This document shows positions 480 to 7,409 of a DNA stretch of 7,409 nucleotides, piece by piece; the stretch's first letter is position 1; each line of letters begins with the position of its first letter. The notes under the pieces are model-generated. The model was not told the DNA's origin. It saw only the letters and a list, made by a program, of their open reading frames with translations, and searched no databases. Source of the DNA: Chloroflexota bacterium (GTDB lineage: Bacteria > Chloroflexota > Limnocylindria > P2-11E); assembly GCA_025350745.1 (NCBI GenBank), contig JANXXG010000328.1, positions 1-7,409 on the forward strand, written 5' to 3'. The position numbers and the translations under genes were made by a program.

Positions 480-865
480 CTTGCCAACTCCACGCTCACA
501 CGCGACATGACCTGGGTCCTCCGATCTCAGCGGGGCACTTCTTAGCGGTTAGACGTGCCAAACCCAGGTCCATGGCCCGAACCTGGCAAAAGTGAGAACA
601 GCCGCGGCGAGACCGCCTGGACTCCCTAGAACAGCTGGCTGGACCCCGAAAGGAATCTCTGCGGTCGTGAGATCCCGGGGATCTGGGGGGGCTTCCTGCA
701 ACCCCTGGCCCATAACTTGGCGCCGCCCGACCATCTCGCATGAGCGTCCGCGTCTATCAGGTCACCTTCGAGCTCTGGCATCTCGCAAGTATCCTGCCCC
801 TCAGGACGCCGTTCGAGAGACCCGCGTGTCGGGCTGGAGTTCGGGCGCGCTCTAGGCTTTGCGGC
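480..865. other. Divergent intergenic region, no gene seen
   Basis: This 386-nt gap separates the minus-strand lipoprotein from the plus-strand hydrolase/cyclase, so both promoters should lie here. No clear sigma-70 box pair is visible for either gene. It holds three copies of the hexamer ACCTGG/CCAGGT near the lipoprotein side and a small inverted repeat AGATCC-CGG-GGATCT at 670-684, next to a G-run. The plus-strand frame of the cyclase stays open through part of it (from 740), but that stretch looks unlike protein and is treated as leader. Confidence 0.5.
509..586. repeat. Inverted repeats of ACCTGG upstream of lipoprotein gene
   Basis: GACCTGGGT (509-517) and ACCCAGGTC (562-570) are perfect 9-bp inverted arms 44 nt apart. 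CCAGGT (564-569) pairs again with ACCTGG (581-586) across 11 nt. The three half-sites lie 30-107 nt upstream of the TTG start of the lipoprotein. They could be regulator half-sites or a leader hairpin. In GC-rich DNA a six-base motif can recur by chance, so this is a weak call. Confidence 0.3.
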
Positions 866-2209
866 ATGGCACCAACGGTCCTGTACGCGCGGAGCGGCGA
901 GCTTCAGATCGCGTATTCCATCCTCGGCGCGGGACCCGTCGATGTCGTGTGGTGCGCAGGCGCGATGTCTCACCTCCAAGGGCAGCTCGCGTCGCCGTAC
1001 TTCCGGCAGATGTGGGATCGGCTGGGGACCTACTCGCGCCTCATCCTGTTCGATCGACGCGGCTCCGGGATGTCCGACCGTCCGCCCGGTGTCGCGACGC
1101 TCGAGGAGCGCATCGATGACATCCGCGCGGTGATGGACGCCGCGCAGAGTGAGCGCGCGCACATTTTTGGGGTCTCTGAAGGCGGGCAAATGGCCTCACT
1201 GTTCGCAGCGACGTACCCCGACCGGACCCGTTCGCTGATCCTCTGGGGTACCCGACCGCGGTGGACGCGGACAGCCGACTACCCTTGGGGCCCGACCGAC
1301 GAGCAGGCTGAGCGCGCCCTCGAGGAGAGCGTCGCGAACGGCTGGCGCCCGGATCTGACCAGTCCGTTCATGCGCCGCTGGCTCGGCCCGCGGTATCGGG
1401 ATGACCCCGTTTTCCTCGAAGCGTGGGCGGAGCTCGGCCAACTCTCGATGACCCCGGCCGCGCGCGCCGCTCAGGAGCGGATGAATCGCATTGCGGACGT
1501 GAGGGGCGTCCTGTCGAGCATCCGCGTGCCGACCATCATCCTTGCCGGCGCCGATGACCCGGTGATGCCGCCTGAAATCGCGCGTGACCTCGTCGCGCGG
1601 ATCCCCGGCGCTCGGCACGTCCAATTCGAGGGTCACGGTCACTTGTTGCTCGGCGCGTGGGATGAGGTGAACGAGACGATCCGGGAGTGGGTCACCCAGG
1701 CGGCAGCACCTGTGGCCGCCGACCGGTTCCTCGCGACCGTCCTATTCGTTGACCTGGTCGGATCGACCGACCGGGTCGTGCGCATCGGCGATACCGCCTG
1801 GCGCGACCTCCTCGGCCGCTACTACGCGGCAGTCCGTCGCGATCTTGCGGTGTACGGAGGTGTTGAGGTGGACACCGCGGGCGACGGTCTGCTTGCGCAC
1901 TTCGACGGGCCCGGCCGCGCGATCCGTTGCGCGATGGCGATCGAGCGGACGGCGGCAGCGCTGGGGCTCGAGGCCAGGGCAGGCCTGCACACCGGCGAGG
2001 TCGAGAGGGACGGGGGTGCAATCCGCGGAATCGCGGTCCACCTCGCGGCTCGTGTCGGCGCTCTCGCGGGGGCGGGCGAGGTCCTGGTGTCGAGCACGGT
2101 GCGCGAGCTCGTAGCCGGGTCAGGATTTTCCTTCGCCGATCGGGGCACCCACACCCTGAAGGGGATCCCAGAGCCCCGACAGGTTCTCGCAGTCGAAGCC
2201 CCCGCGTAA
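866..2209 (+). CDS. Alpha/beta hydrolase fused to class III adenylate/guanylate cyclase-like domain
   Basis: 447 aa, two domains. Residues about 1-275 are an alpha/beta hydrolase: nucleophile elbow FGVSEGG with Ser104, acid in GADDPVMP (Asp231) and catalytic His in GHGHLLL (likely His259), so the triad looks complete. Residues about 288-447 are a class III nucleotidyl cyclase homology domain: FVDLVGST carries metal Asp296 and DTAGDG carries metal Asp340, with the 44-residue spacing of mycobacterial Rv1625c. The transition-state Arg is present (Arg396 in VHLAAR). The purine-selecting Lys is replaced by Asp336, the partner Asp by Ala385, and the Asn by His392, so cAMP or cGMP synthesis is doubtful. 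This fusion is a recurrent architecture in Actinobacteria and Chloroflexota; the hydrolase may act as a sensor of a small ligand. No membrane segment, so probably cytoplasmic. ATG 866 is chosen because the hydrolase fold starts there (MAPTVLYARSGELQIAYS); an in-frame extension to 740 looks non-coding. No strong ribosome binding site. Confidence 0.9.
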   Translation: MAPTVLYARSGELQIAYSILGAGPVDVVWCAGAMSHLQGQLASPYFRQMWDRLGTYSRLILFDRRGSGMSDRPPGVATLEERIDDIRAVMDAAQSERAHIFGVSEGGQMASLFAATYPDRTRSLILWGTRPRWTRTADYPWGPTDEQAERALEESVANGWRPDLTSPFMRRWLGPRYRDDPVFLEAWAELGQLSMTPAARAAQERMNRIADVRGVLSSIRVPTIILAGADDPVMPPEIARDLVARIPGARHVQFEGHGHLLLGAWDEVNETIREWVTQAAAPVAADRFLATVLFVDLVGSTDRVVRIGDTAWRDLLGRYYAAVRRDLAVYGGVEVDTAGDGLLAHFDGPGRAIRCAMAIERTAAALGLEARAGLHTGEVERDGGAIRGIAVHLAARVGALAGAGEVLVSSTVRELVAGSGFSFADRGTHTLKGIPEPRQVLAVEAPA

Positions 2210-3093: not shown

Positions 3094-3099
3094 ATGACC

Positions 3100-3621
3100 A
3101 TGCACGTGGACCTCGCGCTGCTTGTGCTGCGGGTCGCGGTCGGTGTGGTCATCTTCGCGCACGGCGCGATGAAACTCGGATGGGTCGGCAAGGGCGGCAC
3201 GCCCGCTGGCACCGCTGGATGGCTCACCAGCATCGGCATCCGCCCGGGTTTGTTCTGGGCCTGGGTCGTGATCCTGGCCGAGGCCGGCGGCGGTGTGCTC
3301 ATGATCCTTGGCCTCGGTGGGCCGATCGGCCCGGGCATCGTGGCCGGCGACCTGGTCGTCGCGATCATCGTGGCCCACCTCCCGAAAGGCTTCTGGGCTG
3401 CCCAGGGCGGCTGGGAGTTCATCGCCCCAATCGCCGCGGGCGCCTTCGCGATCGCCCTGATCGGGAACGGCCGCTGGTCGGTCGATGGCGCGTTCGGGCT
3501 GACCTATTCAAGCCAACTGGTGTACGGGTGGCTCGCGATCGTGGCCGCCGGTGCGCTGCTCGCGCTCGTGATACGCGCACTCGCGCCAAAGCCCAAGCCA
3601 GCGGCGGGCGGCGCGGCGTAA
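3100..3621 (+). CDS. DoxX-family integral membrane protein
   Basis: 173 aa, mostly hydrophobic, with four to five membrane spans: about residues 4-22, 51-71, 76-93, 108-122 and 141-160. The N-terminal HGAMKLGW (His21-Gly22, Lys25) after the first helix and the conserved Glu61 in VILAEAGGG are typical of DoxX/YphA-type proteins. The tail is short, basic and Pro/Ala-rich (PKPKPAAGG), probably cytoplasmic. DoxX is a subunit of archaeal thiosulfate:quinone oxidoreductase; most bacterial relatives are of unknown function, some linked to oxidative or thiol stress (MmpS/SodA/DoxX in mycobacteria). The start is set by the ribosome binding site at 3088-3093. The gene stands alone, flanked by the two TAGATAT repeats, and converges on the YCII gene. 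Confidence 0.88.
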   Translation: MHVDLALLVLRVAVGVVIFAHGAMKLGWVGKGGTPAGTAGWLTSIGIRPGLFWAWVVILAEAGGGVLMILGLGGPIGPGIVAGDLVVAIIVAHLPKGFWAAQGGWEFIAPIAAGAFAIALIGNGRWSVDGAFGLTYSSQLVYGWLAIVAAGALLALVIRALAPKPKPAAGGAA

Positions 3622-4398: not shown

Positions 4399-5013
4399 TC
4401 AGCGCGGTCCGACGATCCGCCACGCGATCGGGAGTGCGACCGCTGCAAGCAGCAGCTTGTACAGGTCCCCGACGATGAACGGGGCGATGCCGGCCGCGAT
4501 GACCTGGCCGCCGACAAAGCGCGCCAGCCACGGCAACCCGAGCGCGTAGATCGCGACCTCGCCGACGAGCATCGCCGGCACGGCCGTGGCCAGCCGACGA
4601 TCCCAGCCGCGCTCGGCGAAGCGGCCCACGAGGAAGGCAGCGAGCGCGAATCCGGCGAGGTATCCCCCGGTGGGACCAATGAGGATCGCTGGCCCCGATG
4701 TGCCGCCAGCGAACACCGGCGCGCCAACTCCGCCTTCGGCGAGGTAGGCCACGACGCTCGCCAATCCGAGCCGACTCCCGAGCGCCGCGCCGACAACCAG
4801 CACCGCGAACGTCTGGCCAGTGACCGGCACCGGGCTGAACGGCAGGTCGATCCGCAGCTGCGCGGAGAGCGCAATGACCACGGACCCGCCGATCACCAGG
4901 GCGAGCTTCCAGACGAGCGAATCCGGGGCCAACGAGATCGCGACCGGTCGGGCCCTGGTCGCGATCACAGCCGCGATGATAGCCGTCGCGTCGGGCACCG
5001 CGACGCGCATCAT
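4399..5013 (-). CDS. bioY: Biotin transporter BioY (ECF S component)
   Basis: 204 aa. BioY is the membrane substrate-binding subunit of the energy-coupling-factor biotin importer, working with EcfA/EcfT-type (or BioM/BioN) partners or, in some bacteria, alone. The family pattern is clear: LPFSPVPVTGQTFAVLVVGA (about 57-76), YLAEGGVGAPVFAGG (90-104), GPTGGYLAGF (113-122), FIVGDLYKLLLA (179-190). Six hydrophobic helices fit residues about 33-52, 66-90, 110-130, 142-160, 168-182 and 184-201. Start: tandem ATG codons at 5013 and 5010; neither has a clear Shine-Dalgarno, so the message may be leaderless or the start slightly different. No bioM or bioN is adjacent. The gene diverges from the GH130 gene and ends two nucleotides before a strong hairpin. 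Several biotin auxotrophs rely on such a lone bioY; whether this one makes biotin cannot be seen here. Confidence 0.93.
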   Translation of the reverse strand: MMRVAVPDATAIIAAVIATRARPVAISLAPDSLVWKLALVIGGSVVIALSAQLRIDLPFSPVPVTGQTFAVLVVGAALGSRLGLASVVAYLAEGGVGAPVFAGGTSGPAILIGPTGGYLAGFALAAFLVGRFAERGWDRRLATAVPAMLVGEVAIYALGLPWLARFVGGQVIAAGIAPFIVGDLYKLLLAAVALPIAWRIVGPR

Positions 5014-5154
5014 CAGTGACCCGCGCGCAGCGGATCGAACGGGTGCAGCGGCATGCCCGTGCGCGTGATCGCGTTCGCCGGTCCGGGAGACCCGACGTCG
5101 GGCTCGGGCGTCCGCGCGATGTGACGCATCGCACAGGGTGGGGAGTGCTCTGAC

Positions 5155-5188
5155 TTGTACAGAGCCGCGCTTCAACGTTGGTGTACCG
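5155..5188. promoter_or_regulatory. Possible BirA-type biotin operator
   Basis: TTGTACAGA (5155-5163) and GGTGTACCG (5180-5188) are imperfect inverted 9-nt arms separated by 16 nt, with GTACA/TGTAC exactly paired. The known BirA operator is TTGTAAACC, about 14-16 nt, then GGTTTACAA; each arm here matches six of nine bases. Its place between bioY and the GH130 gene would suit biotin control of bioY, but it is about 140 nt from the bioY start and only 10 nt before the GH130 start. It may be chance. Confidence 0.25.
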
Positions 5189-5197
5189 TTCCGGCCC

Positions 5198-6406
5198 GTG
5201 ACCGGCCTTGCCCAGCGCGTCGGAGATCGCCCGCTGTTGATGGCGGCGGACGTGCGCCCGTCGCAGCCCGGCTTCGAGGTGCAGAGTGTCCTCAACCCCG
5301 CGGCGGCGCGCGTCGGCGACGAGACCGTCCTGCTGATGCGCGTCGCGGAGCGGCCACGGACGGATCTCGACCCGCCGGCCGGCGCGCGGACCCTCGATTT
5401 CACGGGTCCACATCCGAAGATCGTGGCGCTCCCGTCCGGCCACACGAGGGCCGACGTCGTGGCGATCGCGATGCGCGATCCGGAGGCCCGGGGTTTCCGC
5501 TACACCCCGATCTATCTGCCGAAGGACCTGCCAGGCCTCGATCTGTCGGATCCGCGTGCGATCAGCTTCACCCACCCGACGCTCGGACGGCACCAGACAT
5601 TCCTCACCCAGGTCTCCCATCTCCGCTGCGCGCGCAGCTCGGACGGCGTCCACTTCACCGTTGACGACGAGCCTGCGATCGCCCCGGCCGCCGATCTCGA
5701 GGAGTTCGGCTGTGAGGATCCGCGCGCGACGTTCCTCGACGGCGCCTGGCACATCACCTACGTGTCGGTCTCGCGCGTTGGCATCAGCGCGAGCTTGGCC
5801 GTGACCAAGGACTTCCGGACCTTCGAGCGGCTCGGGGCGATGCTGCCGCCGGACCAGAAGGACCTCGCGCTCTTCCCGGAGCGCAAGCACGGGAAGCACA
5901 TGGCGCTGACGCGGCCGATGCCGAGCTCGTTCGGCCACGTGCTCGGCATTTGGATCGCGCACGCCGACGAGCGGATGCCGTGGGGTAATCATCATCCGCT
6001 CGTTCTTCCCCGGGAGGGGATGTGGGACGAACGTCAAACCGGTGCAGGCACCGTTCCATTCGAATGCCGCAAGGGATGGCTCGAGATCTACCACGGCGTG
6101 AACGCCGAGATGCGGTATGCCCTCGGCGCGGTGCTCCTCGACAGGACGGACCCCTGCACGGTCCTCGGGCGAAGCCCCGAGCCGATCCTGCTGCCGGAGC
6201 GGCCGTACGAGCACGCCGGCCTACTCTCCGACGTCGTGTTCACCTGCGGTCACGTGCCGCTCGATGACGCTGGCCAGCGGATCCGCGTCTACTACGGCGC
6301 CGCGGATTCGGTCATCGCGGCCGCGGACTTCGACGTCGATCAGATCCTCGACTCGCTCGAACCGTCACCGGCCGCATTCGGGAACCCCCAGCGCGCAGGC
6401 GCCTGA
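5198..6406 (+). CDS. Glycoside hydrolase family 130 protein (beta-mannoside phosphorylase or mannosidase)
   Basis: 402 aa, the usual GH130 length, a five-bladed beta-propeller fold. Landmarks: ADVRPSQPGFEV then VLNPAAARVGDETVLLMRVA (residues 17-50), CEDPRATFLDGAWHITYVS (172-190) with Asp174 as likely proton donor, KDLALFPERKHGKHMALTRP (221-240), WGNHHPLV (262-269), GAGTVPFECRKGWLEIYHGV (282-301) and VYYGAADSVIAAA (364-376). GH130 enzymes split beta-mannosides, mostly by phosphorolysis, some by hydrolysis; which applies cannot be settled by eye. No signal peptide, so cytoplasmic, acting on imported oligosaccharides. GTG 5198 is chosen because relatives start about ten residues before the NP-L/RPLL-ADV segment; GTG 5138 and ATG 5240 are alternatives and none has a strong ribosome binding site. 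No sugar transporter is adjacent. Its stop lies 3 nt from the stop of the convergent redoxin gene. Confidence 0.88.
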   Translation: MTGLAQRVGDRPLLMAADVRPSQPGFEVQSVLNPAAARVGDETVLLMRVAERPRTDLDPPAGARTLDFTGPHPKIVALPSGHTRADVVAIAMRDPEARGFRYTPIYLPKDLPGLDLSDPRAISFTHPTLGRHQTFLTQVSHLRCARSSDGVHFTVDDEPAIAPAADLEEFGCEDPRATFLDGAWHITYVSVSRVGISASLAVTKDFRTFERLGAMLPPDQKDLALFPERKHGKHMALTRPMPSSFGHVLGIWIAHADERMPWGNHHPLVLPREGMWDERQTGAGTVPFECRKGWLEIYHGVNAEMRYALGAVLLDRTDPCTVLGRSPEPILLPERPYEHAGLLSDVVFTCGHVPLDDAGQRIRVYYGAADSVIAAADFDVDQILDSLEPSPAAFGNPQRAGA

Positions 6407-6409
6407 CGC

Positions 6410-7400
6410 TCAGGGGACCGGCGCCTCCGGCACGGCGAGCGTCAACGCGATCGCGTTCGGCGGTAAACACTCGGTCGCACTGCAGGTCTGGAAGCGCACC
6501 GCGATCTCGAGTCGAACCACGCCGGAGTTCCGCGGGATCGTGAACTCGAGCGGTATCGTCATCGCCACCGTTCCCTCATAGACCGAGAACTCCTCATCGA
6601 GACCTGGGATCCGGAACGGCGTCGGCTCGGGCCATGCGATCGGTCCCATTCGCACGCCGTCCGGGCTGCTCACGATGTCGATCCCGAGCGTCGTGTCGCC
6701 GGCGGCCACAGCCGGCCCGTAGACGTGCCAACCGGGTGCCACGCCGAGCTCGAGGTGGAGGCCGAGACGCTGGTACGGGAAGTAGCTCGGCGAATCGAGC
6801 CACGCGCGACCCGAAACAATGGCCAGCGGACCGGTCGTCGTCGTTTCGATGCGCGGCTCGCCCTCGTTCGCGGCCACGCCGAGGAGCTCCTCGACGAGCC
6901 AGCGACCCCCGTTGCGCAGGCGGTAGTTCGCTTCGACGATCTTCCGCTCGACGCGGCCCGCTGCATCGAGGACGAAGGTCATCGGGTAGGCAACACCGAG
7001 CTGCTGAGGGTTCACGGTCCCGCCGAAGGCCCCGTGGTGGGCCTCGAGGTCGTCATCCAGGACCCCGAGCTCGCGGATGACCCGGCTGCCTTCGTCGGCA
7101 AGCAGTGAATAATCGACGTGGTGCAGGTCGGCAAAGGCCTTCAGGTCCGCGGGGCGGTCGTAGCTGATCGCGAAGACGGCGTAACCGGCGCGCTCCAGAG
7201 TGGGAAGGACCCGTTGCAGCTCGACCAGCTGCGTCTTGCAGTACGGTCACCAAACCGCGCTGCGATGCAGGACCACGACCGCGCGACGCCGGTGATGACG
7301 GTGCGGGTGGAGGCGGCGCCGTCAACGGCCCGAGCGAAACCTCGACCGGCGACGGGGTACATCCCGCCACCAACAATAAGATTGCGAGCGGCCTCACCAC
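6410..7400 (-). CDS. Lipoprotein: redoxin with in-frame UGA (candidate Sec, U-P-Y-C) plus DsbD-alpha-like domain; needs one frame change
   Basis: Three parts. (a) From GTG 7400, VVRPLAILLLVAGC is a lipoprotein signal with lipobox LVAGC, then a Pro-rich linker; the true start may lie outside the window. (b) An AhpC/TSA-type redoxin domain reads RAVVVLHRSAVW-[UGA]-PYCKTQLVELQ, then AGYAVFAISYD, DYSLLADEGSRVIRELGV and GVAYPMTFVLDAAGRVERKI. (c) A DsbD N-terminal (alpha)-like domain: GLHLELGVAPGWHVYGP, then the Cys pair FQTCSATECLPP (codons 6484-6482 and 6469-6467). The usual redoxin motif is W-C-P-Y-C; the first Cys codon is TGA at 7249-7247, in frame with everything downstream to the stop at 6412-6410. 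Signal (a) is in a different frame from (b), with the change between about 7321 and 7280; the frame of (b) has another stop at 7324-7322. Full product about 330 aa, anchored outside the cytoplasmic membrane, probably passing electrons between its two thiol domains. Readings: selenoprotein with one sequencing indel; decaying gene; or two sequencing errors. Confidence 0.75.
7211..7249 (-). other. UGA codon with bacterial SECIS-like stem-loop
   Basis: The transcript reads UGA (7249-7247), then after 14 nt a perfect 6-bp stem GCAGCU (7232-7227) / AGCUGC (7221-7216) closing the loop GGUCG. A lower stem CCGU (7246-7243) / ACGG (7214-7211) can form across an asymmetric loop. The distance from UGA to the apical loop is 20 nt and the loop opens with GG, which fits the known bacterial SECIS rules (a G among the first two loop bases, loop roughly 16-37 nt from UGA; the E. 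coli fdhF loop also carries GGUC). Caution: the stem sits on codons for Q-L-V-E-L, where CAG-CTG and GAG-CTG pair naturally in GC-rich genes, so it could be coincidental. Confidence 0.45.
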
Positions 7401-7409
7401 AGGACCGAG

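What the first reader, a model, noticed from the sequence alone, without database searches (positions are those of the whole stretch)
7211..7249. Candidate selenocysteine at the redoxin active site (W-U-P-Y-C) with SECIS-like hairpin
Seen: TGA replaces exactly the first Cys codon of a W-C-P-Y-C redox motif; the reading frame is protein-like on both sides and clean for about 280 codons downstream; a 6-bp stem with loop GGUCG starts 14 nt after the UGA. Known: U-x-x-C replaces C-x-x-C in several bacterial thiol oxidoreductase selenoproteins, and bacterial SECIS elements lie just 3' of the UGA. Inference: this is a selenoprotein, to my knowledge in a redoxin/DsbD-alpha fusion. Counter-evidence: a second lesion in the same gene, and a hairpin that common codon choice could create.
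Basis: partly seen in the sequence, partly recalled or inferred. Interest (0 to 1): 0.82.

Follow-up and report, generated by a model that had tools for sequence, protein, structure and literature searches.

The report
Selenocysteine redoxin fused to DsbD-like domain
A bacterial redox-enzyme gene carries an in-frame UGA "stop" codon at the place where a few related proteins have cysteine, all eleven related genes whose DNA covers the site carry it too, and it is very likely read as selenocysteine, although most of the database entries listed for this family start only after that codon.

Summary
UGA at 7249-7247 (minus strand) is followed in frame by 278 codons encoding the rest of a redoxin (AhpC/TSA) domain and an nDsbD-like domain. 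All 11 other distinct genes whose DNA covers the site carry UGA there (W-U-[PG]-[YF]-C). In 10 relatives aligned by codon, both sides evolve as coding sequence in one frame. The host MAG encodes selA, selB and tRNA-Sec; selD was not found in this 80.8%-complete assembly, but 15 of 15 other genomes tested have it. Of 240 database entries listed in two searches, 232 begin after the UGA, 4 have Cys and 4 have Trp at the site (probably TGA read by code 4). So the family looks mostly Sec and mostly annotated as truncated. The hairpin fits published bacterial SECIS rules but is only weakly above codon-choice expectation. The window copy is not intact as assembled: similarity to relatives stops at 7312, near the contig end (7409). 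UxxC redoxin selenoproteins are known. I found no named nDsbD fusion in the catalogue passages seen, and no NCBIfam model reaches its cut-off. New variant of a known kind.

The parts
6410..7312 (-). Recognisable part of the selenoprotein gene (300 codons with UGA as residue 22, then stop TGA 6412-6410)
   Evidence: aligned with 10 relatives
7247..7249 (-). In-frame UGA, predicted selenocysteine, first position of U-P-Y-C
   Evidence: TGA at the same place in 11 of 11 other distinct DNA loci covering it
7238..7240 (-). TGC, the partner Cys of U-x-x-C
   Evidence: Cys invariant in 11 rows
7216..7232 (-). SECIS-like hairpin GCAGCU-GGUCG-AGCUGC, 20 nt from UGA to loop
   Evidence: fits the bacterial SECIS stem, loop and spacing rules in PMC13188914; statistically weak, and not the preferred fold of the window sequence
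6947..7282 (-). AhpC-TSA/redoxin domain (thioredoxin fold)
6452..6772 (-). nDsbD-like (DsbD_N) domain
   Evidence: PF11412 51.7 bits (cut-off 25); one search matches 6c29, 1vrs, 1jzd
6467..6484 (-). Conserved C-x4-C pair (TGC 6484-6482, TGT 6469-6467) of the nDsbD-like domain
   Evidence: C277 and C282 conserved in at least 90% of 52 rows
7313..7409 (-). Stretch up to the contig end with no similarity to the N-terminus of relatives; gene broken or contig end misassembled here

Best explanation
The UGA at 7249-7247 sits at the first position of the U-P-Y-C motif of a redoxin gene fused to an nDsbD-like domain, is present in all eleven other genes whose DNA covers the site, and is likely translated as selenocysteine by the host's SelA/SelB/tRNA-Sec system. 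SelB would be recruited by the short stem-loop 14 nt after the UGA (predicted, not shown). The protein would then be a thiol oxidoreductase, probably cytosolic (no signal peptide seen by eye in relatives; no predictor was run): the selenol of U-x-x-C attacks a disulfide or peroxide and is resolved by the neighbouring Cys. The C-x4-C pair of the nDsbD-like domain would pass electrons to or from this centre within the same chain, as nDsbD does with the thioredoxin-fold domain of DsbD (inferred from domain homology). The copy in this contig lacks a recognisable N-terminus, either because the contig end is wrong or because this copy is damaged.
For: TGA at the site in 11 of 11 other distinct DNA loci covering it, including a paralogue in the same genome at 59% identity; no other TGA in the 11 codon-aligned rows. 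Codon positions 1/2/3 differ 0.337/0.277/0.540 upstream and 0.313/0.270/0.521 in the next 100 codons among 10 relatives, so both sides are coding in one frame. Host genome: selB 346 bits (cut-off 242.25), selA 391.3 bits (cut-off 267.9, cut by a contig end), tRNA-Sec 73.8 bits (gathering score 47) with anticodon tca. selD over cut-off in 15 of 15 other genomes tested, each match itself with one in-frame TGA. Cys at this column in four database proteins; two of them, P0124 and P0125, lie among Sec or probable-Sec members on starred branches of a tree rooted only at its midpoint. All 120 listed hits and 112 of 120 listed hits begin after the UGA. Second-Leu codon CTG/TTG in 12 of 12 genes against 159 of 315 Leu codons elsewhere in them. 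AlphaFold mean pLDDT 92.7.
Against: No selD in the assembled host genome (the one hit is below cut-off and its ORF reads as PurL by eye). Hairpin: stem-only test against resampled codons not significant (Fisher p 0.43) and other in-gene windows reach it often (Fisher p 0.074); the window sequence prefers a competing fold (46 shuffles of 200 as good, z -0.64), and the predicted 45-nt fold holds the hairpin in only 8 of 12 sequences (by eye); only one compensatory pair, reached in 47 of 500 shuffles. tRNA-Sec occurs in 327 of 400 phylum genomes, so its presence is not discriminating, and one family-positive genome (G175) had no match. L033 has the UGA but no DsbD_N match. The window copy has no intact 5' end. 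No protein-level evidence.
Confidence: 0.88

Rival explanations
1. The UGA is a nonsense mutation in a decaying gene, or a sequencing error for TGC/TGT.
For: A second disruption lies upstream in this copy, and the site is 160 nt from a contig end.
Against: The same codon is found in 11 of 11 other loci, with 271 or more open codons downstream in 10 of them (L037 set aside: its frame is disturbed) and coding-type substitution on both sides in 10 relatives.
Confidence: 0.04
2. The UGA is a true stop and the functional protein starts at an internal codon after it, as the database entries are annotated.
For: 232 of 240 listed database entries of two searches begin after it.
Against: That protein would lack the first residue of the redox motif and the N-terminal part of the fold. 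The part up to W-U is conserved in frame in 10 relatives. Four entries have Cys there and run through.
Confidence: 0.03
3. UGA is read as tryptophan (reassigned code or near-cognate readthrough) rather than selenocysteine.
For: Four database entries show W-W-P-[YF]-C.
Against: 9 of the 12 genes also end at TGA. The 11 codon-aligned rows hold one in-frame TGA each. The column is Cys, a redox residue, in four other relatives. The host has tRNA-Sec, selA and selB. The W entries fit gene callers using code 4 (inference; their DNA was not seen).
Confidence: 0.03

Closest known systems
Prx-like thiol:disulfide oxidoreductase (PF00578, UxxC/UxxU) and 'Redoxin family protein' (PF08534, UxxC) of the prokaryotic selenoproteome catalogues (PMC13188914, PMC9312934; passages seen)
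   Same: Same fold family, same U-x-x-C motif, Sec encoded by UGA.
   Different: The catalogue rows seen name no nDsbD partner domain; the example accessions could not be fetched, so identity with this family is not excluded.
[quoted passage not shown] passages seen)
   Same: U-x-x-C redoxin (PF08534-like) fused to a second domain with conserved Cys.
   Different: Unknown_3 is described with three conserved Cys including C-x-x-C; here the second domain has two, as C-x4-C, and is recognised as DsbD_N. The figure with its alignment was not seen.
DsbD / ScsB N-terminal (alpha) domain with thioredoxin-fold partner (PDB 1vrs, 1jzd, 6c29)
   Same: An nDsbD-like domain with a Cys pair; in DsbD it works with a thioredoxin-fold domain (recalled; 1vrs is that complex by its title).
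   Different: Only redoxin-type and DsbD_N Pfam families pass their cut-offs, the redoxin precedes the nDsbD domain, and the redox centre is U-x-x-C.
SelL-related redox protein (NF040769) and TUGYCR motif (seleno)protein (NF053656)
   Same: Thioredoxin-fold families named for Sec members.
   Different: Scores far below cut-off: 20.4, 37.6, 40.6 and 28.9 of 120 for four proteins, and 18.3 of 100 for one.
Rhodanese/DsbD fusion-like selenoprotein TsoB (NF045694, PMC13188914, passage)
   Same: A selenoprotein named for a DsbD-like part.
   Different: Listed as rhodanese-like with a UxxxxU motif and two Sec; not among the hits.

Membership tests
Bacterial selenoprotein | In-frame UGA at a redox position, conserved in relatives, Cys in some homologues | tested here: met
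Bacterial selenoprotein | Sec machinery selA, selB, tRNA-Sec in the same genome | tested here: met
Bacterial selenoprotein | selD in the same genome | tested here: inconclusive
   not found over cut-off in the 80.8%-complete assembly; present in 15 of 15 other genomes tested, one of them of the same genus
Bacterial selenoprotein | Bacterial SECIS just 3' of the UGA | tested here: inconclusive
   fits stem, loop and spacing rules in 11 of 12 sequences; weak or no support from codon and fold controls
Bacterial selenoprotein | Selenium shown in the protein | not testable with these tools
   no protein data
AhpC/TSA-redoxin superfamily (PF00578/PF08534) | Profile score over the curated cut-off | tested here: met
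nDsbD / DsbD_N (PF11412) | Profile score over cut-off and a conserved Cys pair | tested here: met
   also 5 of the 6 proteins (L033 is the exception)
Complete DsbD | Transmembrane beta and C-terminal gamma domains after nDsbD | tested here: not met
   only AhpC-TSA, Redoxin and DsbD_N pass Pfam cut-offs in the window protein; NCBIfam DsbD (NF001419) reaches 16.7 of 330 bits in one of four proteins; no membrane predictor was run
SelL-related redox protein NF040769 | Score over cut-off 120 | tested here: not met
   20.4, 37.6, 40.6 and 28.9 bits
[quoted passage not shown]
   two conserved Cys, C-x4-C; description from passages of PMC2398784, figure not seen

The most novel reading that the evidence does not exclude
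An unnamed two-domain selenoenzyme family in which selenocysteine is the default state: a U-x-x-C redoxin carrying its own nDsbD-like electron partner on the same chain, spread over Chloroflexota and Actinomycetota, with occasional Sec-to-Cys conversions, and overlooked because gene calls are cut at the UGA.
Probability: 0.6. Interest if true: 0.6.

Novelty: new variant of a known kind. Interest (0 to 1): 0.52.

Why it matters
More than 230 listed database entries of this family begin after the UGA and so lack the first half of their redox motif. Naming the family would restore a conserved Sec enzyme in bacteria known largely from metagenomes. It also offers a natural case of a selenol centre paired in one chain with an nDsbD-like domain, which can be tested biochemically, and its four Cys members allow Sec and Cys to be compared within one family.

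Tried and rejected
Pseudogene, sequencing error, internal start and UGA=Trp were considered and rejected as above. Co-occurrence with tRNA-Sec was tried as a test and is uninformative: 327 of 400 phylum genomes have it, and 10 of 11 family-positive genomes. The dinucleotide-shuffle fold of the window hairpin gave z -0.64 and a competing structure; the predicted 45-nt folds hold the hairpin in 8 of 12 sequences, not in the window, L031, L033 or L037 (counted by eye). Codon resampling gave Fisher p 0.0045 (MFE) and 0.43 (stem), and 0.0041 (longest stem under the SECIS rules) and 0.074 (other in-gene windows); these combine related sequences as if independent. An inverted-repeat search with 12-base minimum found none in 7000-7409, and Rfam at gathering score found nothing in the window. 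A DNA search for 7253-7409 in 61 genomes found only short weak matches besides itself. L034 (G066), which covers only the second domain, was left out of the 12-locus count, as were L014-L021 and L023, whose matches are to other redoxins. L028, L035, L024 and L053-L058 repeat loci already counted; L025 and L036 are identical over the 66 nt compared and were counted once. L037 has a disturbed frame further downstream and was left out of A4 and the codon-position count, but kept in the TGA, hairpin and Leu counts. The tree's Cys label is no more clustered than shuffled labels. Gene neighbourhoods were looked at only in L036 and the window and suggested no partner. Paper searches were seen as listings only; one gave none.

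Full report

RELATIVES. A protein search of 61 genomes (own and relatives) found 12 matches in 10 genomes. The three strongest (the window, a paralogue at 59% identity in the same genome, and G015 at 46%) each contain one TGA, as do the next three, which are other, shorter redoxins; the remaining six contain none. A profile of the part after the UGA found 12 matches in 11 of 400 genomes of the phylum. A scan of named genome contigs gave two loci, L036 (Candidatus Dormiibacterota) and L037 (Candidatus Microthrix). Counting distinct sequences that cover the site (window, L022, L013, L025 = L036, L026, L027, L029, L030, L031, L032, L033, L037), 12 of 12 have TGA there, so 11 of 11 besides the window. 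In the codon alignment of 11 of these 12 (L037 left out for its disturbed frame), the TGA column is shared by all 11 and each row has exactly one TGA. L033 reads W-U-G-F-C and lacks a DsbD_N match. A full-length search of the 29 genomes of one class found 6 matches, each with one TGA (these are loci already counted).

BOTH SIDES ARE CODING. Among 10 relatives the fraction of differing bases at codon positions 1, 2, 3 is 0.337, 0.277, 0.540 upstream of the UGA and 0.313, 0.270, 0.521 in the 100 codons downstream. So the region before the UGA is selected as protein in the same frame as the region after it.

DATABASE VIEW. In one search, 126 proteins matched, 120 were listed, and all 120 begin after the UGA (starts printed and read by eye; some begin far downstream and so say little). 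In one search, started from an intact relative, 343 matched and 120 were listed: 112 begin after the site, 4 have Cys (P0124, P0125, P0130, P0178) and 4 have Trp (P0126-P0129). The matches that were not listed were not seen. In one search, the 22 hits other than the query also begin after it. In a tree of 35 proteins, rooted only at its midpoint, the Cys members P0124 and P0125 lie inside groups of TGA or probable-TGA members on starred branches, which suggests Sec-to-Cys change; P0130 and P0178 are on long branches and their place is unsure.

MACHINERY. The host assembly (2.0 Mb, 426 contigs, 80.8% complete) holds selB over cut-off, selA over cut-off on the same contig and cut by its end, and one tRNA-Sec over the gathering score (ARAGORN anticodon tca). 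No selD reached cut-off; the weak hit lies in an ORF that I recognise as PurL (by eye). In 15 of 15 other genomes tested, selD is over cut-off with one in-frame TGA. tRNA-Sec is common in the phylum (327 of 400), so this shows that Sec is possible, not that it is used here.

HAIRPIN. The stem GCAGCU/AGCUGC, loop GGUCG, 20 nt from UGA to loop, satisfies the stem, loop and spacing rules of the published bacterial SECIS model (section 5 of PMC13188914 read in full), and 11 of 12 sequences keep an uninterrupted 6-7 bp stem at the same place, one with a G-U pair. Against this, there is only one compensatory pair, reached in 47 of 500 shuffles; predicted 45-nt folds hold the hairpin in 8 of 12 sequences and not in the window (by eye); and codon controls are mixed. 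The clearest sign is the second Leu codon: CTG or TTG in 12 of 12, against 159 of 315 Leu codons elsewhere in these genes, about 3 in 10,000 if the rows were independent, which they are not. I call the SECIS probable but unproven.

THE 5' END. Relatives have 51-62 residues before U, with start codons chosen by me, a conserved stretch like IGPxxGxxFPDVxLPDQ and, by eye, no signal peptide. In the window, in-frame similarity stops at 7312, an in-frame TGA lies at 7324-7322, and none of the three frames upstream resembles the relatives. The lipoprotein-like start in another frame (GTG at 7400) is therefore not shown to belong to this gene. The contig ends at 7409, so assembly error and true damage cannot be told apart. 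Intact copies exist elsewhere.

MECHANISM. Shown: sequence, conservation, machinery genes, domain matches, a confident predicted fold. Inferred: Sec insertion, the SECIS role, and a selenol-based thiol or peroxide reductase whose nDsbD-like C-x4-C pair (C277, C282, conserved in at least 90% of 52 rows) relays electrons within the chain. The U-x-x-C pattern resembles TlpA/DsbE-type disulfide oxidoreductases more than the T-x-x-C of true peroxiredoxins (recalled motifs), so disulfide exchange is the more likely activity.

KNOWN OR NEW. The selenoprotein catalogues list Prx-like thiol:disulfide oxidoreductase and 'Redoxin family protein' with UxxC (passages of PMC13188914 and PMC9312934). [quoted passage not shown] No NCBIfam model reaches its cut-off for the four proteins tested. 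Paper searches with selenoprotein + DsbD + UGA and with selenoprotein + redoxin + DsbD + metagenom returned only the 2026 review, selenoprotein + Limnocylindr returned none, and a search naming soil, Actinobacteria and Chloroflexi returned none. The library holds only part of the literature. I rate it a new variant of a known kind.

Noticed in passing
G000:C45:123-989 (L022): A second copy of the family in the same genome, 59% identical, with the usual upstream part and one TGA at the same site.
   Followed up: yes
L014, L015, L016 (G021, G022, G016): A shorter redoxin with D-W-U-P-Y-C-N and one TGA, in genomes of the same family; its visible C-terminal part shows no DsbD-like sequence by eye; probably another selenoprotein.
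   Followed up: partly
L038-L052: selD in 15 genomes carries one in-frame TGA each, so selenophosphate synthetase itself appears to be a selenoprotein in these bacteria.
   Followed up: partly
L001 2225-2620: A 131-aa ORF resembling RidA (by eye) lies between selA and selB in the host genome.
   Followed up: no
window 5138-6406: Glyco_hydro_130 (mannooligosaccharide phosphorylase) gene, convergent with the selenoprotein gene, with 3 bases between the two ends.
   Followed up: partly
window 740-2209, 3094-3621, 4399-5445, 3-479: An alpha/beta hydrolase fused to a nucleotide cyclase domain, DoxX, BioY, and a Lamin Tail Domain protein with a lipoprotein-like start (the last by eye).
   Followed up: partly
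P0126-P0129: Trp at the Sec position in four database entries, probably TGA translated by code 4 in the source annotation.
   Followed up: partly
L037: The Microthrix relative has a disturbed frame in the middle of the gene that recovers later.
   Followed up: no
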